DNA from: a bacterium
Lineage (GTDB): Bacteria > Patescibacteriota > Saccharimonadia > CAILAD01 > GCA-016700035
DNA: 36,735 bases
Direction of reading: 5' to 3'
Assembly: GCA_020854115.1 (NCBI GenBank)
Contig: JADZGC010000001.1
Location: forward strand, 1-36,735
The notes under the pieces were generated by a model. It was not told where the DNA came from and did not search any database. It saw only the letters and a program-made list of their open reading frames with translations. The position numbers and the translations under genes were made by a program. This document shows, in pieces, positions 24,736 to 35,393 of the stretch (within the stretch, counting starts at the first letter, position 1; each line of letters starts with the position of its first letter).

Positions 24736-25134
24736 ATGGATCAGAACGCGAATGTGCCGCAGCCGGGCCAGACGCAAGACCCTAGCGGGGCAGCACCTGT
24801 GATGCCGCAGGCGGCAACAGACGGGTCGACCAGTAACGCGCTGGAAGTATTTGCTCAGAATTTACTCATCGAGAGAGGTGTTCTTGATCTAGATGCAGAG
24901 CTCGTGGCTGGTATGAAGGCCGATATCATGCAGCGACTGGAGGTGCTCTCGACGCAAGTTATTGTCCAAGCTCTGAGCGATGTGGACACGGCTGAGTTTG
25001 AAAAAATGATTGACAATGGGGCTACGCAGCAGCAACTACAAGCTTTTGCCGAGAGTAAGATTCCAGACCTGTCGAAGCGATTAACGGAGGCCTTGCTGAG
25101 GTTTAGAACCACGTATCTTGGTGTGGTGGCGTAA
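24736..25134 (+). CDS. DUF5663-like small protein, function unknown
   Basis: The 132-residue protein has a disordered Gln/Pro/Ala-rich N-terminal third and an all-helical remainder: NALEVFAQNLLIERGVLDLD, then the DIMQRLEVLSTQVIVQAL stretch, and AEFEKMIDNGATQQQLQAF. That pattern (a FAxxLLxERG start, a short amphipathic helix ending in an E-L-E/F-E motif) fits the DUF5663 family, which I know mainly from Patescibacteria; I recall it from memory. GAGGG six bases upstream supports the ATG. It lies 16 bases before the giant gene, so the two are likely co-transcribed. Confidence 0.75.
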   Translation: MDQNANVPQPGQTQDPSGAAPVMPQAATDGSTSNALEVFAQNLLIERGVLDLDAELVAGMKADIMQRLEVLSTQVIVQALSDVDTAEFEKMIDNGATQQQLQAFAESKIPDLSKRLTEALLRFRTTYLGVVA

Positions 25135-25150
25135 TAATTCTTAAACAATC

Positions 25151-28100
25151 ATGGCAGAAACAATGATCAACAATGACGAACAGGTTCATGCTGATGAGGC
25201 TCGTGAGAGCACAGTTACTGATGAATTACGGCAGATTGTCAAAGACCAGGAGCGCCCTGACTCGAGTGCGCCAGCTGATAAGGATAGTGTCTGGGATCGC
25301 CTGAGTGGTGTAGCACAGAAGCAGCCCGGAGAGACACCCGAATCTATATTTGCATCGGCTGCCCCGGCAGACGCAACTCGATCCGAAACAAATACCACCC
25401 CTGATAGTGGGGTCACGCAGTTGGGTGTCTTACGCAACGAAACCGCTGCAGCTGAAGCAGCTCTCCAACGAGCGTTACTAAACCAAGACCATCCAGACCG
25501 AGTGAAGTTGCTACAAGACAAGGTTGAGGATTTCCAAAGACGCCTATCGGAGGCAGAAAAGAACAGCGAAGGTCAGCCCTGTACTATTCTCGGGGTTAGT
25601 CCAGAAGCTGGCGCGAGCAATACTAGTGAAGCAGCTGAGACTATTCCTACAGAGCAAGAAAACGGAGAAAAGCTCATCGATGGCGCGTGGGAAGGCACGT
25701 TTACCTTTAATGGCGTCAAAGTAGGTTGGGGCGATACGATTACTTACCAAGAAAAAGATGGCGACATTATTGAAGCAGTAGTGATTGGTTTTGTGGGTTT
25801 GCCAGGAGAAGAGCCTCAGCTTGCCTTGCGGAGTGATGCGTATAATGGTTTGCAATTCATCGTAGGTCGCGGGAATGAGTTTCGGGTAGTCAATGATCCG
25901 CCCGCAGAACCCCCAGAGGATCCTGTCGAAGGACCACCACAGCCACCAGCTCCCCCAACAACTCCACCCGGTCCACCCACCTCGGTTCCTCCTGGTCCTC
26001 CTGATGCAGTGCCACCGACCACCCCGACCGAACCTCCGACTGAGCCGAAGAATCCTCTGCTTGGCGCGACGATCGGTGTAGCCGATGTACGTGACTCGAA
26101 GTTTGCGAAGGCTCATCAAGAGGCTGAAGAAGAGCTTATGAAAGACAAGGCAGAGCTTGATGCCAAGATGGAGGCCTTTTATGACAAGCATCCTGGGGTG
26201 GCTAAGAGTACTATAGGTCGTGGACTGCTCAAGATGTACTACACGGCGCGTCATCCAGTCGAGACAGTTTGGCGCCAAAACATCATGCGTAATGCAACGG
26301 TCCAGAGCCGGCTGTATGAATTTATTAATGGCGATCGACAGGATGAGATAGCGTTTTCTGACAAGACTGCGCAAGCGACCATCGAGCGTCTTGGTGGTGG
26401 TCAAGCCGCTCGTGAAGCAGGGAGAGATGGAGAAGCGGCTACTCTGATACACGAAGGTGAGAAAGTTCAAGGTGAGACAGACCCAGCAGTGGCTGCGATG
26501 AAGAGCCAAATCGCTGATTTGTGTAAGCAATTTGCGACTGATCCAGCGATGTCACGTGAGGACTTCCTGGAAGCTAAAGAACGCATTATCGTGTCAGGCG
26601 ATTGGGATCACAAGCGGCGTGATGCCAGTGGAGAGCTCATTGTCGATACGGTCGACAACATCACTCAGTATGCTGAGACATTGCGGGCTCATTTCGAACA
26701 CACTCGAAGTATGGAGGATGTCGATGAAGCTCTGGCGACGATGAGATTCGTAACTGGCGAGGCGAAGATAGGTCCTCGTACTGAAACTGAGCTTCCTACC
26801 ACAAATCGCATCATCCAAAAACTTCAGGCTCGTGGGATTGGGGTCGTGGCAAGCGAAAAGACGCTTGCTATAGCAATCGCTGCAACAGGTGCGTTGTTGA
26901 CGCGTGGCTCTACGAGCATGGCTTCTAAGGCATTGCGGTACGGGACTCTCGGAGCTGGCGCCGGGATAGCAGGCATCGGCGCCTACATGAGGGAGAAGCG
27001 GACGGTGGCAACTGAGCGAGCTGTCACGGCCAGGCAACGTGCAACTGGTGAGCAGGGTCCTTCTGACGATACAAATCTCGAGACTGTGCCGCACCGCGAG
27101 AAACTGACTGAGACCCTGCAAGACCTCGTGCCGTCAGTAGCGATTATCAATGGTCTTGATGCAGCAATTCTCGCTTATCCAGAAGACGGGACAGCAGTAG
27201 ACAGAGCCCAACTCAACGACATGGTTGCGAAACTTGTTGAGGTACGATCACGTTTACAGTGGGGTGACTTAAATAAGCAAGACACCATTCGGTTTAGCTC
27301 AGAGGATACGATGGAAGAAGAGCGATTGGCAATCGATACAAAAGTTATTATTCTCTCCTCGCTTCTCGAGGATTACTACACTGCTCACCCAGATCTTTTG
27401 CCACCAGGATATAGCTCAATTCAAGAGGTTATCGATCAGCAGGCTAAGTTGTATAAGGAGTCACAGCTCGAAGTTGCCCAGGCGGCAGGCGATGAGAAGT
27501 TCGAGTCGTTTGCTAAGAAGCGAGCAGTTACGAAAGCTGCCCTGACTGTAGCTGGTGGAGTGGTTAGTGGGTGGTTGGTCAAAGAAGGTCTAGAGCTGGC
27601 GGATAGCAAACTGGGACTTGGCTGGTTGACAGAGACTAAAGGCACGCCACCGCGCCCAATGGAAAACTCTTCGCATGATGTTCTAGGTGTAAATTATGAT
27701 ATGCCGAAAGACTGGCGATTTGATGCTAGTCCAAATGGGAATGGTACGGCGATTTTCAATACAAAAGGTGAGCTGGTGGCGGACGGTCTGCATACAACCC
27801 CTGAAGGTGGACTCACTCCAGATAGTATAGCGCTTCTCGAGGGTAAGGGCATGAAAATCGAGACTACCTTGTCGACGGTTGCAGATGTACCGGAGCAAGT
27901 ACATCTAGACAATAACTTCATCGCTTCGCAGCAGCCTCGCATCGCTCGAGAGTGGATGAATAATAACACTACTGAGTTTGACCTAAACGAGCTGCGTGCT
28001 TATTGGCGCGTGGAGGGTGATCAATTGGTGCTTGATGCAGGCAAGATGCGCTTGGGCGGCAGCTTCCGAGATGGTCGATACGTCGATGCGCTGGCGGAAT

Positions 28101-29788
28101 TCCGCAAGGGGAATGGAAAGATGCTCTTCTCGCTTGATCGCACCCACCAGTCACAGCCAATTGCTCTCGACGTATTACCGGATGGCACCTTGCGATTGCC
28201 GGTCAATGGTCCTGAAGTTCAAACGCTATTTGATCTCAGTGGCGGTGATATCAAACTTAAGGCAGCCTTCTGGGAAGTGGGCACTGGTAACGGTGTCGCT
28301 GCTGATGGGCGTGCCAAATTTGATATTTTAGCAACCTGCGTCGGCGAAGATCGCACGACTGGGGTCGATGTACCTGTGCCTCGCACGAAGACGCTCGCCA
28401 GTACGGTGATTACTGCCATGGAGCCAGGCTCAGAAACGACGACTGTCACAGATGCGCCATGGTTCTTTGTGCCTATCCCACTGTCGCGCTTTGGTCTTGA
28501 AGCGATCCCTCCGCGGCGCGAGAGACGAGGTGAAGGCGCTACTATACGCCCTACAAATCCAGACGGCTCAGGGGCTGGACGGCGCACATTTAACCCAGCA
28601 GCTAATGACGCTCTTATACCATTGCCTCCCGCTAGCGACCCCCTGCCAGCTATTGGTAGAGGACCAATACCATTTGGTGAAATAGGACCCGGACAGGTGA
28701 CTGACCAAGATCCCTCTCCAGGCCCGCTACCTGAGATTCCACCCGTCAATCCTGCGCGAGGCGAGCTGACTACAGGAAGTGCTGCGATTGCCGAAATTCC
28801 TCCTCGAGCCGAGTCGCTTGCACGGCGGATCAACGATCGCGAAGCCGCCACTGCTACAGCTGCGGATATGATGCGACTTGCGGGCCTAAATGCGGATAGT
28901 GAAGGATTTCAGGATCTGTGCGAGCGAGTGCGAAGTGGTTTGTACTCTCAGGGCGATCTGATTGCAATGAAGGCGATGCTTGAACTAGCAGGGGCTCGGA
29001 TCGGAGCACGTTCAGATCAGGATAGCTTTGATGCTACTCGAGATATTATGGCGGCTACCGAATATTTCAATCGGCTAGAGCGTCAATTCAACGCCGAGCA
29101 AATGGATCAATTGACACTGCTCTATGATGTTGTTGATAGTGTGAAGAAATTTGATGAGCTTGGGTTCAAGCTTGAGCAGCCACAAGTTGCGTTTGGCCGA
29201 CTGGGCAACATGATCCGTAGAGTGCAGGGCGGGAAGCAGCTTAAAGCTGAAGAATATCGTTGGTTAACTGGAGTAGTGCAGATTAGCTCAGAACTAACCA
29301 TTGCGGCTTTGCACCAGACAGAGGAGCGAGTGAAGAATGCATCTCGCAGTGCGCGCGAACGGCAGCACTGGCAGGTCGAATATGCTCGACGCCGTGAACG
29401 AGTACGATCGCTGCAATCGGCTCGTGAGAATCTATTGCTTCGCCTTACGACCCTGGCAGGCGGTGGATTGGCCGCTGAGTCTACGCTGCGGCAACCGGTC
29501 TCATCCCCAGAGAACACTCCCACGGCCGATGTCCCTCAAGAAGCACCCGAGGTCCAGCCGGCACCGGTTGCGCCAGTAGGAGATACTCAGACTGAAGCAA
29601 TAACCGCAGAGGTTGCGGCATCACCAGAGCCTGATCAGCAAGCACCATCCGGTGAAACGCTCGCGCCACCACCGACTCCTCCAACCGATCAGATCCAGAT
29701 GATCGGCGGCCGACCGAATCGAGTCGTGACCGACCCTGATGGAAGAATTCGGTTTGAGCCTATCGAGGCGACCCAAGCGGCTGCATAG
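25151..29788 (+). CDS. Giant (1545 aa) multi-domain protein of unknown function
   Basis: I do not recognise a family. In order: an acidic, disordered N-terminus with a helical part (about 95-135), a small beta-rich block (about 175-250, WEGTFTFNGVKVGWGD), a long Pro-rich linker (about 255-300), and a charged helical region with basic patches (about 310-555). Next come a hydrophobic pair (about 570-612), a helical part, and a second hydrophobic segment (about 796-816). A beta-rich domain follows (about 830-1130, DWRFDASPNGNGTAIFNTKG), then another Pro/Gly-rich linker (1140-1215), a helical domain (about 1220-1450) and a Pro/Ala/Glu tail. The segments could be membrane spans placing the beta domain outside. 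No signal peptide is visible and no Shine-Dalgarno precedes the ATG. Confidence 0.8.
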   Translation: MAETMINNDEQVHADEARESTVTDELRQIVKDQERPDSSAPADKDSVWDRLSGVAQKQPGETPESIFASAAPADATRSETNTTPDSGVTQLGVLRNETAAAEAALQRALLNQDHPDRVKLLQDKVEDFQRRLSEAEKNSEGQPCTILGVSPEAGASNTSEAAETIPTEQENGEKLIDGAWEGTFTFNGVKVGWGDTITYQEKDGDIIEAVVIGFVGLPGEEPQLALRSDAYNGLQFIVGRGNEFRVVNDPPAEPPEDPVEGPPQPPAPPTTPPGPPTSVPPGPPDAVPPTTPTEPPTEPKNPLLGATIGVADVRDSKFAKAHQEAEEELMKDKAELDAKMEAFYDKHPGVAKSTIGRGLLKMYYTARHPVETVWRQNIMRNATVQSRLYEFINGDRQDEIAFSDKTAQATIERLGGGQAAREAGRDGEAATLIHEGEKVQGETDPAVAAMKSQIADLCKQFATDPAMSREDFLEAKERIIVSGDWDHKRRDASGELIVDTVDNITQYAETLRAHFEHTRSMEDVDEALATMRFVTGEAKIGPRTETELPTTNRIIQKLQARGIGVVASEKTLAIAIAATGALLTRGSTSMASKALRYGTLGAGAGIAGIGAYMREKRTVATERAVTARQRATGEQGPSDDTNLETVPHREKLTETLQDLVPSVAIINGLDAAILAYPEDGTAVDRAQLNDMVAKLVEVRSRLQWGDLNKQDTIRFSSEDTMEEERLAIDTKVIILSSLLEDYYTAHPDLLPPGYSSIQEVIDQQAKLYKESQLEVAQAAGDEKFESFAKKRAVTKAALTVAGGVVSGWLVKEGLELADSKLGLGWLTETKGTPPRPMENSSHDVLGVNYDMPKDWRFDASPNGNGTAIFNTKGELVADGLHTTPEGGLTPDSIALLEGKGMKIETTLSTVADVPEQVHLDNNFIASQQPRIAREWMNNNTTEFDLNELRAYWRVEGDQLVLDAGKMRLGGSFRDGRYVDALAEFRKGNGKMLFSLDRTHQSQPIALDVLPDGTLRLPVNGPEVQTLFDLSGGDIKLKAAFWEVGTGNGVAADGRAKFDILATCVGEDRTTGVDVPVPRTKTLASTVITAMEPGSETTTVTDAPWFFVPIPLSRFGLEAIPPRRERRGEGATIRPTNPDGSGAGRRTFNPAANDALIPLPPASDPLPAIGRGPIPFGEIGPGQVTDQDPSPGPLPEIPPVNPARGELTTGSAAIAEIPPRAESLARRINDREAATATAADMMRLAGLNADSEGFQDLCERVRSGLYSQGDLIAMKAMLELAGARIGARSDQDSFDATRDIMAATEYFNRLERQFNAEQMDQLTLLYDVVDSVKKFDELGFKLEQPQVAFGRLGNMIRRVQGGKQLKAEEYRWLTGVVQISSELTIAALHQTEERVKNASRSARERQHWQVEYARRRERVRSLQSARENLLLRLTTLAGGGLAAESTLRQPVSSPENTPTADVPQEAPEVQPAPVAPVGDTQTEAITAEVAASPEPDQQAPSGETLAPPPTPPTDQIQMIGGRPNRVVTDPDGRIRFEPIEATQAAA

Positions 29789-29810: not shown

Positions 29811-29839
29811 TTGACTTTTTCAGATAAATATGCTAATAT
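29811..29839 (+). promoter_or_regulatory. Promoter at the left edge of the G+C-rich island (TTGACT-17-TAATAT)
   Basis: TTGACT at 29811-29816 and TAATAT at 29834-29839 are 17 bases apart. It lies in AT-rich DNA and resembles the promoters of ordinary genes in this window, including those at 8251 and 34020. Confidence 0.8.
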
Positions 29840-29851
29840 TCGCGAGACCTA

Positions 29852-29865
29852 CCCCGATCTCGGGG
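29852..29865 (+). promoter_or_regulatory. Leader hairpin CCCCGATCTCGGGG
   Basis: A short perfect inverted repeat followed by TTT lies just after the predicted transcription start and 50 bases before the ATG. It may stabilise the 5' end or act as an attenuator. Confidence 0.4.
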
Positions 29866-29915
29866 TTTGCAGTCAACGCACCATCACATTCGAATCAACA
29901 GAAAGGGGGAGATGT

Positions 29916-31415
29916 ATGTCTCCCAAGCCCACCAGAACACATGTATTTAAGTCCCTCAAGGACTTGGACCCCGCCCTGTTCGGGGGCGAACAGGACCCTG
30001 CGCTTGCGCAGGTGATCAAGTTCTCACCACGTGCCGAGATCGAAGACGAGTCGGGCTATCCCGATTCGAGCGATCGGGACGCACAGTCGTCCGAGACAGA
30101 TGGCGAGAGCCAGCCGGAGGCGAGCGAGCCCACCGCTGACTCCAGCGCTTCCACGACCCCACGGCGCATCCTCATCAGGGATCTCTGCCAGGACCTGGTC
30201 GCCGCAGGCGTCGATGCCGACGAGGGGGTGGCGATGCTGCGCATCCGTGCGTGGTACGCCGCCAACGTCGAGAACGGCGCTGACAAGGCGATCGTTCCGG
30301 CCACCACGGCGCGCAAGGCGTTGCGGGAGGCGGTTGCCTCCTGGATCGCTGCTGCGCAGTCCACTACGGCTGAGCCCGCGGAGTCCGACACGGACGCCGA
30401 TGGGTCGAGTGATGCAGCAGCTGTTACGAACTTCTCACGCTCTCTGACGGTCGACGAGGCCAAGGAGGAGCTGATGGAGTTCATCGTCGCTGCTCGTGCT
30501 TCCGGCCAGGTCCAGCCGCTGGCAGACAAGATCTTCACGCTGGGCTTCGAGCTTGGCATGAACGAAGATCAGCTCTTCAGGATCGGCAAGAAGGACAAGG
30601 CCTATTCGCCGACTCGAGCCGAGCTCGAGAAGGACCCCGAACTCATCAAGAAGACGTGGTACTACGGTGCTGCCTTCTGGATGAGCAAGGAAGAGCGTGA
30701 GCCCGAGGAGGTCCTCGCGGACTGGTACTGGCCCGGCACCAAGCCGAAGCCGGTGCGTACCCGCGAGCCTCGGTCTCAGGAAGCGGCGTCACCCGTGCTC
30801 TCACTTCCGCCCCTGCCCGCCACGAAGCCCGATCCCGTTTCCACGGAGCCCGACAAGGATTCCGGGGACGCAGAGCCGGCTCAGGTCAGCTCGGACGCCG
30901 ATTCGCCCGTGACTGAAGTGCTCGATCCCGAGCGTCAGTTCCGGGTGCATCGCACTGGGATGATTCTCGACCGGCTCGAAGGTGAGTCGGATGAGGACTG
31001 GCAGGCTCGAACGCGCCAGGCGGTCAGGGATGCCAGGAGGGAAGCCAGGAATGGCGACCAGCCTGCGCCCAGCACCGAAGGAAGTCCGTTCTCGACCGAG
31101 AGCGCGGATGCCTCACGGGCACCGGTCAAGCGTGTGTCCAGCCTGCCGGGAGGCGGTATTCGTATCGTGCGCACTGATGGCACGACCGAGGACAAGCCGT
31201 ACGACTGGTCGGCAGAGACGGATGAGCCGGAAGGCCCCGACACTTCTGCTACCCAGTCGACCGATGCCGAATCCATGGGCGACGAGCCCGTGGGTGACGT
31301 GACGGATGTGGTCGACGATCTGGACGATGAGCTCGCTCGTATCACGCGAGATACCGAGTTCATGTTCGACCAGGGTGTCGATCCCGAGGCTGTCTTCGCG
31401 GCCCTGTTGGACTAG
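29916..31415 (+). CDS. Acidic, largely disordered protein of unknown function (499 aa)
   Basis: Unrecognised. There is no signal peptide or membrane segment, so it is probably cytosolic. Two or three compact parts are separated by Ser/Asp/Glu/Thr/Pro-rich linkers: about 85-150 (ILIRDLCQDLVAAGVDADEG, a helical domain), about 185-285 (TVDEAKEELMEFIVAARASG through MNEDQLFRIGKKDKAYSPT and KKTWYYGAAFWMSKEER), and about 350-395 (RQFRVHRTGMILDRLEGE). The last 35 residues are acidic and helical. The ATG at 29916 has AAAGGGGGA upstream; an open frame extends further 5' from a TTG but includes the promoter. Its own promoter and terminator flank it. Confidence 0.75.
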   Translation: MSPKPTRTHVFKSLKDLDPALFGGEQDPALAQVIKFSPRAEIEDESGYPDSSDRDAQSSETDGESQPEASEPTADSSASTTPRRILIRDLCQDLVAAGVDADEGVAMLRIRAWYAANVENGADKAIVPATTARKALREAVASWIAAAQSTTAEPAESDTDADGSSDAAAVTNFSRSLTVDEAKEELMEFIVAARASGQVQPLADKIFTLGFELGMNEDQLFRIGKKDKAYSPTRAELEKDPELIKKTWYYGAAFWMSKEEREPEEVLADWYWPGTKPKPVRTREPRSQEAASPVLSLPPLPATKPDPVSTEPDKDSGDAEPAQVSSDADSPVTEVLDPERQFRVHRTGMILDRLEGESDEDWQARTRQAVRDARREARNGDQPAPSTEGSPFSTESADASRAPVKRVSSLPGGGIRIVRTDGTTEDKPYDWSAETDEPEGPDTSATQSTDAESMGDEPVGDVTDVVDDLDDELARITRDTEFMFDQGVDPEAVFAALLD

Positions 31416-31422
31416 ATGGTGT

Positions 31423-31463
31423 ACCCCTGGTAGAGCTTCGGCTTTACCAGGGGTGTTTTATTT
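31423..31463 (+). terminator. Strong intrinsic terminator after the acidic gene
   Basis: ACCCCTGGTA (31423-31432) pairs with TACCAGGGGT (31445-31454); the stem continues through GAGC/GCT to a TTCG tetraloop and is followed by GTTTTATTTT. Confidence 0.93.
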
Positions 31464-31511
31464 TCTTGATCAAACTTGACTCAATTATTGTCAGCACATG
31501 ACCATAGGGGC

Positions 31512-31540
31512 TTGATTTTTTTGTCAAATTATGATAACAT
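31512..31540 (+). promoter_or_regulatory. Promoter of the coiled-coil membrane protein gene (TTGATT-17-TAACAT)
   Basis: Both boxes lie in an AT-rich stretch 17 bases apart. The leader to the ATG at 31698 is about 150 bases and contains no obvious gene. Confidence 0.6.
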
Positions 31541-31697
31541 GCACGCAACTCCTTCTCATAGGTGGAGTGAACCTACTATCTATTCAGTTGAGCTATAGGC
31601 AGCAGAGTTGTGTTTAGAGCTCTACGCGCATCAGATCGATGTACGTGGAGCCTGAACACAACCAACCAACTAACCCGACCCACAGGAGGTCACCGAC

Positions 31698-32708
<1,011 letters not shown>

Positions 32709-32715
32709 TCATCTC

Positions 32716-32758
32716 GGTGGTGGGGTCCTTCTTGGACCCCACCACCGCCTACTTTTTT
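32716..32758 (+). terminator. Strong intrinsic terminator after the coiled-coil gene
   Basis: GGTGGTGGGGTCC (32716-32728) pairs perfectly over 13 bp with GGACCCCACCACC (32734-32746), followed by GCCTAC and a run of T. Confidence 0.95.
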
Positions 32759-32871
32759 CATAATCGTTATGGTTTTATACCGCACAGCACCTCGGTGGTG
32801 TCCGGTACCCGAACCTGAACCTGAACAACCCGCTCCTCGCGAGAGGGGCCCGAGTCTCGAGGAGAGACATC

Positions 32872-33906
32872 ATGCAACGGAGATTCTTCTTCGCAGGACC
32901 GTTGATTCTGCTCGCCGCAGCAATCCTGCTGTGGGCGACCCCCACCCTCACCCGGGTCATCGCGGACCCAGGTCCGGATAGCACGACGACCACCGTCCCG
33001 ACGGCACCTCCGAGCGGAGACACTTGCGCCACCACGGTGCACTTCTTCGCTCAGGACGTCGGTGGCCACAAGTTCGGCCCAGCCGTGACCGAAGAGGTAA
33101 ACGCGGCTCAGGCCGACTTGCGGAACCGACTCTGCAGCGACCCCGCTCTGGCTGTGGCGTTGCAGGAGGACGTCTCCGACACCTTCTCGTCTCCGGACGA
33201 GCGGGTCGACAAGACGGCTGCATTGGTCCAGAACCCGGACGCCTGGCGTCTGACGGTCCTGGCGGTCACCAACGCCGTGGCGCAGGGAAACCCCCGCGTC
33301 GAGACGATGTCGGGGTCGTACAAGACCCTGTACATGGTGACGGAAGGTCGGCAGATCCCGGAGGTGTTCAATGCCTCCCCGGACAAGCCGAGCTTCGGGG
33401 TGCTGCGGTTCGACACGCCCCAGGGTGTGAAGAATCTCAAGCTGGACTGTGGATTCCAGCCGGTGGAGCAATCGTTCCCTCCGGCTGTTCCTCCTCGGAC
33501 CCAGCCTCCTTCCCCGAGGCAGCCCAAGCAGCCGCCGAAGCCCCCGACCACGGTGACTCCACCCACCACGGCTCCGCCGACGGTGACCACCCAGCCTCCT
33601 GCCACGACCGTGCCGCCGTCTCCGACGACGACTTGGAAGTGCGATAAGGGCTGGAAGCTCGTCGGGGGTCAGTGGGTCTGCGGTACCGGCGGTGACGTCG
33701 GCACTCCGCCGTACCAGCCACCGTCGACTCTCCCGCCGACCCCGGGCTTCAACCCGGCAACGACGGTTCCGGGGTCGACGATCCCACCAGGGGCCACCCC
33801 ACCGGTGAGCTTCGCCCCCACCCCGCCTCCCGAGGCGCCGGTGACGACCGACCCGCCGGCACAGGGTGATCCCTGTCAGTCGGCCAGTCCGCCTGCCTTC
33901 TGCTAG
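32872..33906 (+). CDS. Exported Cys- and Pro/Thr-rich protein of unknown function (344 aa)
   Basis: Unrecognised. A basic start and a hydrophobic core (about residues 5-22) form a signal peptide or membrane anchor. A Thr/Pro linker follows, then a folded domain (about 50-200) starting GDTCATTVHFFAQDVGGHKF and ending VKNLKLDCGFQPVEQ, with Cys near both ends. The rest is a long Pro/Thr-rich stretch interrupted by a small module WKCDKGWKLVGGQWVCG with two Cys, and ends in DPCQSASPPAFC. Paired Cys suggest disulfides outside the membrane. GAGGAG nine bases upstream supports the ATG. It ends in a strong terminator. Confidence 0.8.
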   Translation: MQRRFFFAGPLILLAAAILLWATPTLTRVIADPGPDSTTTTVPTAPPSGDTCATTVHFFAQDVGGHKFGPAVTEEVNAAQADLRNRLCSDPALAVALQEDVSDTFSSPDERVDKTAALVQNPDAWRLTVLAVTNAVAQGNPRVETMSGSYKTLYMVTEGRQIPEVFNASPDKPSFGVLRFDTPQGVKNLKLDCGFQPVEQSFPPAVPPRTQPPSPRQPKQPPKPPTTVTPPTTAPPTVTTQPPATTVPPSPTTTWKCDKGWKLVGGQWVCGTGGDVGTPPYQPPSTLPPTPGFNPATTVPGSTIPPGATPPVSFAPTPPPEAPVTTDPPAQGDPCQSASPPAFC

Positions 33907-33953
33907 AATAGGGGGCTTGTCCTCCTCACTCGGTAGTAGTTCAGGTTCCATCC

Positions 33954-33990
33954 GGGGCCGAGCGCGTATGCGCTCGGCCCCTCTTCTTTA
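33954..33990 (+). terminator. Strong intrinsic terminator at the right edge of the island
   Basis: GGGGCCGAGCGC (33954-33965) and GCGCTCGGCCCC (33970-33981) form a perfect 12-bp stem with a GTAT loop, followed by TCTTCTTTA. Confidence 0.93.
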
Positions 33991-34019: not shown

Positions 34020-34048
34020 TTGACAAATATGCTTATGTATGATAATAT
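34020..34048 (+). promoter_or_regulatory. Promoter 1 of the LPXTG surface protein gene (TTGACA-17-TAATAT)
   Basis: TTGACA at 34020-34025 and TAATAT at 34043-34048 are 17 bases apart, a near-consensus promoter about 140 bases before the start codon. Confidence 0.85.
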
Positions 34049-34196: not shown

Positions 34197-35393
34197 ATGA
34201 CTATGCTTACAAAAGTTCGCAATATTGCCTTGGCTGCTGGATTGGCTTTGCTTCCACTCGCTGCGCACGCTACTGACACGGTTCGTCTCGAATCACGTCT
34301 CGGTGTAGCAAACGCTTCTGCGGGTGAGCAAATGTACAATGCAAGCACCACTGCAAAGACCGACGAAACTGTTCAGGTTCAGTTGTGGTATCACAACATG
34401 GAAAACCCAGACAGCAATAAGGTCGCTCAAAATCTCAAAGCCAAGCTTCAGCTTCCGACTGCCGCTGGCAAAACCCAAAACATCAACGGTACAATCAGTG
34501 CCGACAACGGTAATACCGTAAACACCAACGCTACTGTCAATCTGACCCCAGAAAACAGCCGTCTCGAAATGGTCCCTGGCACCGCTATGTGGCGCCACAA
34601 CAAAGGCACTAACGAGCAGCCAAACTGGGTGACTGAAGGCCTTACGCCAGCTCAGGAGCAAGCGCTCTTGAATGGTGGTGTGGTTCTCGAGAATGCAAAG
34701 CCATGCTTTAACTTCGAGGCAACCCTCACCGTGAAGCTGCGCGTCAAGACTGACATCGTAGGTATCAGCAAGCAAGTGCGTGTACTTGGTCAAAAAGACT
34801 GGGTAACCGAAAACACTGCTAAGTCTGGTGACACACTCGAATATCGTATTAAATTCCAAAACGGTGGCAACACTGTACTCAAAGACGTTCAGATTGCTGA
34901 CACCCTTCCTGCAAACGTAACCTACGTAGCTGGTAGCACCAAGCTCGCGAATGGCAACCATCCTGATGGTGTGGCTGTCTCTGACAACCTCACAAAGGGT
35001 GGCATCAATGTCGGCGATTATGCTCCAGGTGCAGTCGGATATGTCATGTATCAGGTGAAGATTGCTAGTGATCTTAAACCAGGTAGCTATGACCTCAAGA
35101 ACGTTGCAGGCGTGAAAGTTGGCGAACAAATGAAATTTGCCGAGGCTCACACCAAGGTAACCGTTGAAGGTCCTAAGGAATGTAAGCCGGGTATTCCAGT
35201 AGGCGATAGCCGCTGTAATCCTACTCCTCCAACTCCAACCACACCGGTAACGGGTGGGACTGGCACGAGTTTGCCAGAGACTGGTCTTGAAGGGGCTGCA
35301 GCAGGTCTGCTCGGTACGACCGGTTTGACCTATGCTGGCTACTTCTACCGCCGAAGCCGCAAGGCTTTGACGAGCGCACTTCGAAACCAATAA
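34197..35393 (+). CDS. LPXTG surface protein with a DUF11-type repeat domain
   Basis: The 398-residue protein has a signal peptide (MTMLTKVRNIALAAGLALLPLAAHA), an N-terminal beta-rich region (about 25-210) and a DUF11-like immunoglobulin-fold domain (about 215-325) with SGDTLEYRIKFQNGGNTVL, DVQIADTLPANVTYV and a closing EAHTKVTVEG. A Pro/Thr/Gly linker is followed by a sortase sorting signal: LPETG (359-363), a hydrophobic span and a basic tail RRSRKALTSALRNQ. It should be anchored to the wall or exported to the cell surface. The ATG at 34197 has AAAGGAG at good spacing; an upstream ATG frame from 34173 includes that site. No sortase lies in this window. Confidence 0.9.
   Translation: MTMLTKVRNIALAAGLALLPLAAHATDTVRLESRLGVANASAGEQMYNASTTAKTDETVQVQLWYHNMENPDSNKVAQNLKAKLQLPTAAGKTQNINGTISADNGNTVNTNATVNLTPENSRLEMVPGTAMWRHNKGTNEQPNWVTEGLTPAQEQALLNGGVVLENAKPCFNFEATLTVKLRVKTDIVGISKQVRVLGQKDWVTENTAKSGDTLEYRIKFQNGGNTVLKDVQIADTLPANVTYVAGSTKLANGNHPDGVAVSDNLTKGGINVGDYAPGAVGYVMYQVKIASDLKPGSYDLKNVAGVKVGEQMKFAEAHTKVTVEGPKECKPGIPVGDSRCNPTPPTPTTPVTGGTGTSLPETGLEGAAAGLLGTTGLTYAGYFYRRSRKALTSALRNQ

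What the first reader, a model, noticed from the sequence alone, without database searches (positions are those of the whole stretch)
29850..33990. Three-gene G+C-rich island encoding a possible cytosol-membrane-exterior system
The sequence shows three unrecognised genes with strong G/C bias (70% in one counted row against 52-55% in nearby genes). Each has its own AT-rich promoter with 17-base spacing and a strong terminator (perfect 12- and 13-bp stems on two of them). The products are an acidic soluble protein, a coiled-coil protein with two membrane spans and an Ala/Pro tail, and an exported Cys/Pro/Thr-rich protein. Together they could form a structure crossing the envelope. Neat single-gene units with local-type promoters mean the genes are probably expressed in this organism. 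Actinobacterial origin is a guess from base use.
Basis: partly seen in the sequence, partly recalled or inferred. Interest (0 to 1): 0.75.

Follow-up and report, generated by a model that had tools for sequence, protein, structure and literature searches.

The report
Exchangeable-head surface protein of Saccharibacteria
The G+C-rich genes are not a stray import but a conserved envelope locus of the Saccharibacteria, whose exported protein keeps its tail while its head domain is repeatedly replaced, which makes it a candidate for the unknown protein with which these tiny bacteria grip their host cells.

Summary
The actinobacterial-import reading fails. Genes 2 and 3 lie at the same place in relatives, directly 5' of a near-universal Ig-like, sortase-type surface gene (274/295 Saccharimonadia), and the gene in the gene-3 slot is more G+C-rich than that neighbour in 26/27 and 29/29 loci.

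Gene 3 carries an undescribed domain found in 56/393 Saccharimonadia. It is modelled with confidence (pLDDT 94.5) and has no solved relative. The slot protein is modular. Relatives keep its tail (59% identity; tail profile E 1e-9 to 1e-23) but carry other heads, and within one genus the head type changes at least five times on the tree of the neighbouring surface protein.

Best reading: an envelope complex in which membrane-anchored gene 2 and exported gene 3 work with the surface protein, the head contacting the host bacterium. Locus and modularity are shown; the adhesive function is inferred. Gene 1 is lineage-specific, not shown to belong. Why the coding stays G+C-rich is unexplained.

The parts
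29811..29839 (+). sigma-70-type promoter of gene 1 (TTGACT, 17, TAATAT)
   Evidence: 9 of 12 matches; 5 such sites in the region against 0.8 in shuffles
29916..31415 (+). gene 1 (isl1): 499-aa acidic, mostly disordered soluble protein; lineage-specific, membership of the system not shown
   Evidence: no Pfam/NCBIfam/PHROG relative
31421..31456 (+). terminator of gene 1
   Evidence: z -6.3
31607..31662 (+). long hairpin in the 5' leader of gene 2, role unknown
   Evidence: z -4.4 for the leader 31560-31700; found once in the 523-kb sample
31698..32708 (+). gene 2 (isl2): cytosolic coiled coil, two membrane spans, Ala/Pro tail (N-in, C-in by charge)
   Evidence: same architecture at the same place in relatives; sequence homology of the window copy only weak (E 0.037)
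32715..32747 (+). terminator of gene 2
   Evidence: z -7.4
32872..33906 (+). gene 3 (isl3): exported slot protein, N-terminal signal/span (residues 5-23), head domain, Pro/Thr-rich tail
   Evidence: homologues in 7 of 16 other genomes of the order
33013..33483 (+). head domain of gene 3 (residues 48-204): four helices then a beta sheet, no known relative
   Evidence: model pLDDT 94.5, pTM 0.90; PDB best E 0.3; 56 of 393 Saccharimonadia
33954..33981 (+). terminator of gene 3
   Evidence: z -4.7
34020..34048 (+). promoter of the surface-protein gene (TTGACA, 17, TAATAT)
   Evidence: 10 of 12 matches
34197..35393 (+). constant partner: DUF11-type Ig-like surface protein ending in an LPETG sorting signal, span and basic tail; codon use as in highly expressed genes
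   Evidence: family in 274 of 295 Saccharimonadia; CAI at 99th percentile

Best explanation
The island is part of an old, vertically kept envelope locus of the class Saccharimonadia. Gene 3 encodes an exported protein made of a signal/membrane segment, a folded head and a long Pro/Thr-rich tail. Gene 2 encodes a coiled coil held on the inner face of the membrane by a two-span hairpin. The next gene encodes the abundant-type Ig-like surface protein with a sortase signal. Shown: the gene order, the constant tail with exchangeable heads, the pairing with the surface gene, and the G+C-rich coding. Inferred: the tail ties the head to the cell envelope or to the surface protein, gene 2 links this to the cytoplasm, and the head is displayed outwards and contacts the host bacterium (or a host-derived ligand), so that exchanging heads changes what the cell can hold on to. 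Gene 1 is an extra, lineage-specific cytosolic protein whose part is not shown.
For: Synteny: isl3 homologues in 7 of 16 other genomes of the order, next to the surface gene/prfB even where that block is inverted. All 27 loci examined have the surface-type gene directly 3'. The domain is class-wide and absent from the rest of the phylum sample (10 of 380, all same class). Modularity: G013/G014 keep the tail (136 bits against a best shuffle of 47.8) with an unrelated head. In family f7, slot proteins without the isl3 domain share the tail: the profile of isl3-domain tails matches ten of eleven of them at E 1e-9 to 1e-23. Within one genus there are at least 5 head changes on the surface-protein tree, with supported sister pairs that differ. 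Fold: pLDDT 94.5, no PDB relative. Surface protein: nearest solved folds are Gram-positive adhesins and pilins (PrgB, AgI/II, MSCRAMM); four sortases in the genome; CAI 99th percentile. Literature: unidentified close-range adhesins are postulated in N. lyticus (PMC12206443), and adhesin-like surface proteins are essential in S. epibionticum (PMC10633639).
Against: No functional data. No physical interaction shown between any two of the proteins. The head has no match to a binding fold. Most of the tail is low-complexity, although its similarity far exceeds shuffled sequence. Head families are called unrelated by sequence and profile, but alternative head A has a collinear 'EL...NPV...A' stretch and could be a very distant relative; its structure was not predicted. 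Genes 2 and 3 are separated by a terminator in the window, so they are not one simple operon.
Confidence: 0.5

Rival explanations
1. Structural or maturation factor: genes 2 and 3 help export, fold or anchor the abundant surface protein (a coat or S-layer-like layer), and head variation follows variation of that layer rather than of the host.
For: Constant pairing with the surface gene; surface gene has highly-expressed codon use.
Against: Head type changes while the surface protein stays closely related (sister pairs L182/L185, L171/L187, L172/L193), which a dedicated chaperone would not be expected to do.
Confidence: 0.25
2. Antagonism or defence: the heads are effectors, inhibitors or phage-receptor decoys, and their turnover reflects an arms race with phages or rivals.
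For: Exchangeable domains beside constant parts are typical of such systems (general knowledge); no relatives outside the class were found.
Against: One copy per locus, no linked immunity-type gene seen, no viral or phage relative, no toxin family match.
Confidence: 0.12
3. Secretion accessory: in family f7 a protein with a large exported part and about seven spans follows the surface gene, so the locus could belong to a secretion apparatus.
For: Downstream 809-1655-aa proteins with about seven C-terminal spans in family f7 loci.
Against: No VirB6/TrbL or other secretion family match; absent from the window's order, where prfB follows or flanks.
Confidence: 0.09
4. Recent import from a high-G+C (actinobacterial) host.
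For: Codon use looks foreign: Lys AAG only, Phe TTC 97%, CGG and CCC used freely.
Against: Synteny and concordant pairing across genera, class-wide G+C excess of the slot, no relatives outside the class, local-type signals and A+T-rich gaps between genes.
Confidence: 0.04

Closest known systems
Sortase-anchored Gram-positive adhesins and pilins (PrgB, antigen I/II, MSCRAMMs)
   Same: The surface partner has Ig-like domains, an LPETG signal and Foldseek matches to these; sortases are present.
   Different: The slot protein itself has no sorting signal, no sequence match and no fold match to them; its head is a new alpha/beta domain.
Proteins with exchangeable binding domains, such as phage receptor-binding proteins or polymorphic toxins (general knowledge)
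   Same: A constant part with repeatedly replaced domains at one chromosomal place.
   Different: Here the N-terminal head varies and the C-terminal tail is constant; no phage genes, no immunity gene, single copy beside housekeeping genes.
Type IV pili of Saccharibacteria (T4P-1, T4P-2; PMC12206443)
   Same: Proposed to act in host recognition; a further close-range adhesin is postulated there.
   Different: No pilin or pilus-assembly gene recognised in this locus.
Essential adhesin-like envelope proteins of Southlakia epibionticum (VCBS, dockerin, FN3 proteins; PMC10633639)
   Same: Exported proteins of an epibiont thought to act on the host surface.
   Different: None of those domains is found here.

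Membership tests
Sortase-anchored surface protein (for 34197-35393) | C-terminal LPxTG, hydrophobic span, basic tail | tested here: met
   SLPETG...YRRSRK; conserved in most relatives
Sortase-anchored surface protein (for 34197-35393) | sortase encoded in the genome | tested here: met
   4 matches over cut-off in the window's genome, 17 of 17 genomes of the order
DUF11 repeat proteins (for 34197-35393) | match above curated cut-off | tested here: met
   PF01345 30.7 bits against 24.6; TIGR01451 48.5 against 24
Sortase-anchored adhesin (for gene 3) | LPxTG sorting signal | tested here: not met
   C-terminus ...SASPPAFC; relatives end ...SPPTAP or ...GGPPD
Sortase-anchored adhesin (for gene 3) | Ig-like or other known adhesin fold | tested here: not met
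   no PDB match at E 0.001 or better
Host-contact adhesin (for gene 3) | binds host bacterium | not testable with these tools
   needs a binding assay
Host-contact adhesin (for gene 3) | exported | tested here: inconclusive
   N-terminal hydrophobic segment in the complete members read and covarying cysteines in the head: predicted, not shown
Recent horizontal import from Actinobacteria | homologues in Actinobacteria and absence from relatives' syntenic site | tested here: not met
   no relatives outside the class; syntenic

The most novel reading that the evidence does not exclude
The slot protein is the class-wide, polymorphic host-recognition protein of Saccharibacteria: heads of unrelated fold are exchanged by recombination onto a constant tail docked to the major surface protein, so that this one locus sets which bacterium the epibiont can colonise; and its coding is held G+C-rich by an unknown selection.
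Probability: 0.28. Interest if true: 0.92.

Novelty: new variant of a known kind. Interest (0 to 1): 0.7.

Why it matters
How Saccharibacteria pick and hold a host cell is open. Type IV pili act at long range, and unidentified close-range adhesins are assumed (PMC12206443). A near-universal surface protein with a neighbour whose head domain is swapped within a genus gives a specific, testable candidate, a new protein fold, and a locus in which head type could be compared with host. The persistent G+C-rich coding in a gene slot of genomes of medium G+C also warns against reading such islands as imports.

Tried and rejected
Relatives in phages and plasmids by tblastn: isl2 and isl1 against phages, isl1 and isl3 against plasmids, none. 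isl1 in genome contigs and in the order: none. isl3 in viral contigs: none. Recent import rejected (see rivals). Translational optimisation as the cause of the G+C excess rejected: CAI of genes 1-3 against rpoB/rpoC/rpsB/tsf is at the 42nd-77th percentile, the surface gene at the 99th. Low complexity as the cause rejected: the 1545-aa low-complexity neighbour is not G+C-rich in codons. A regional mutation bias is unlikely because the gaps between gene 3 and the surface gene are A+T-rich (0.30-0.46 in most loci). Homology of isl1 with acidic genes in relatives: not shown. Homology of the alternative heads with the isl3 domain: not shown. A secretion-system role from the downstream seven-span protein: no family match. 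The 5'-leader hairpin of gene 2 is not a repeat in the sampled genome. Literature searches for S-layer, sortase or codon-usage work on Saccharibacteria gave nothing on this locus.

Full report
Setting. The window is a whole 36.7-kb contig of a 790-kb, 21-contig genome of Saccharibacteria type; relatives found in named records include Saccharibacteria MAGs. The finding lies between secA / a DUF5663-like gene (24736-25134) / a 1545-aa gene (25151-29788) on one side and a DUF11-type LPETG surface gene (34197-35393) / prfB on the other.

Observation. Genes 1-3 have G+C 0.642, 0.677 and 0.675 against 0.499 for 295 ORFs in a 523-kb sample of the same genome. About half of the excess comes from amino-acid composition and half from synonymous codons; two-fold GC3 is 0.76-0.88 against 0.47. 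Lys uses AAG only, Phe TTC 97%, Ile ATC 91%; CGG and CCC, rare in rpoB/rpoC/rpsB/tsf, are common. The three terminators are strong. The scan supports promoters for gene 1 and for the surface gene only.

Synteny. A tblastn of neighbours against loci of the order placed isl3 homologues (about 41-42% identity) between secA and prfB in G002 and G009. They are beside the surface gene in G003, G004, G007, G008 and G010, where the block is inverted relative to prfB. Upstream of each lies a gene with a coiled coil, two membrane spans and an Ala/Pro-rich or polar tail. Those copies are homologous to each other (leave-one-out E 1e-59 to 2e-2); the window copy is only weakly tied by sequence (E 0.037, best in the window with 11 members). 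In G006 the slot is filled by other G+C-rich proteins of similar kind (a three-span protein; an exported Pro/Thr-rich one). Gene 1 has no homologue; acidic genes occupy similar places in several relatives. Trees of isl3 and prfB give the same three pairs of genomes.

Spread. A profile of the isl3 head finds 56 of 393 Saccharimonadia genomes in 19 of 153 genera, and in a phylum-wide sample only members of this class. Of 27 loci examined, all have a surface-type gene directly downstream, most with a recognisable LPxTG-like ending. The isl3-type gene has higher G+C than the surface gene in 26 of 27 (mean +0.115, p 3e-8) and than other ORFs in 26 of 26; the gap to the surface gene is A+T-rich in most.

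Head and tail. In G013 and G014 the slot protein keeps the Cys/Gly/Pro tail of the G002/G009 protein (59% over 111 aa, 136 bits against a best shuffle of 47.8) but has an unrelated head. The surface family is in 274 of 295 genomes. For the 30 best surface loci, 29 had a readable upstream gene: 17 with the isl3 domain, 12 without (in L179 the locus is too short to cover the head), all 29 more G+C-rich than the surface gene (p 4e-9). In the family f7 loci the tails ending ...GEAWGGPPD are shared across head types: a profile of isl3-domain tails hits ten of the eleven others at E 2e-9 to 2e-23. Two alternative heads are seen (A: L173-175, 177, 180, 181, 185, 187; B: L176, L193). Profile comparison does not relate the heads, and Pfam has none of them. 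The loci used for the count are from one genus; on the tree of the surface protein the head label changes at least five times, with supported sister pairs that differ. The surface protein may itself recombine, so this counts exchanges relative to the neighbouring gene, not relative to the species tree.

Structure. The isl3 head is predicted at pLDDT 94.5, pTM 0.90: four longer helices then a six-stranded beta part. Foldseek against the PDB and BFVD gives nothing at E 0.001 or better (best 0.3 and 0.16). AlphaFold DB was not available, so 'new fold' means new among solved and viral structures. A pair of cysteines (in 'AExKC' and 'RFxC') is present together in five order members and absent together in three, which suggests a disulphide outside the cytoplasm (inference). 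The surface protein is mostly beta in the well-predicted part, with Foldseek matches to PrgB Ig domains, AgI/II C-terminal domains, MSCRAMMs and pilins at E 1e-8 to 1e-5 but low whole-chain TM. Four sortases are encoded.

Mechanism. Shown: a conserved neighbourhood, a slot protein predicted to be exported with constant tail and variable head, a membrane coiled-coil neighbour, an abundant-type surface neighbour. Inferred: tail docks, head is displayed, head binds the host bacterium. That would fit the close-range adhesins postulated for N. lyticus (PMC12206443) and the essential envelope proteins listed for S. epibionticum (PMC10633639). I put the adhesin reading at about 0.5, a layer-building role at 0.25.

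Unexplained. Why the slot genes keep G+C-rich, un-optimised codons over class-level divergence while their spacers and the surface gene do not. Import, expression level, low complexity and regional mutation bias each fail a test above. Other single G+C-rich ORFans in this genome suggest a wider phenomenon.

Noticed in passing
window 31607-31662: A long imperfect hairpin in the 5' leader of gene 2; leaders of the equivalent gene in G003, G007 and G008 also fold into hairpins after a terminator, with different sequences.
   Followed up: partly
L054:3025-4068, L049:15427-16686, L046:9389-10009, L055:15585-16175, L051:3083-3803: Other G+C-rich (GC3 0.67-0.85) ORFan genes scattered in the same genome, several with a membrane span; the L054 one is a lipoprotein-like protein with an HELGH motif.
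   Followed up: no
L144:11874-15011, L145:4718-8392, L147:5554-10521, L148:5495-9061: In family f7 the surface gene is followed by a small protein and an 809-1655-aa protein with a signal, a large exported part and about seven C-terminal spans, no family match.
   Followed up: partly
window 25151-29788 and 24736-25134: A large low-complexity protein and a DUF5663-like small protein precede the locus and recur in that order or the reverse in relatives.
   Followed up: no
L126:621-2780, L129:2096-4270, L130:2489-4639: A histidine-kinase-like protein with 8-9 spans lies close to the locus in several genera.
   Followed up: no
L064:2476-7683: The G009 counterpart of the 1545-aa gene appears to carry a glycosyltransferase-like C-terminal part absent from the window copy (read by eye from the sequence; no Pfam match).
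   Followed up: no
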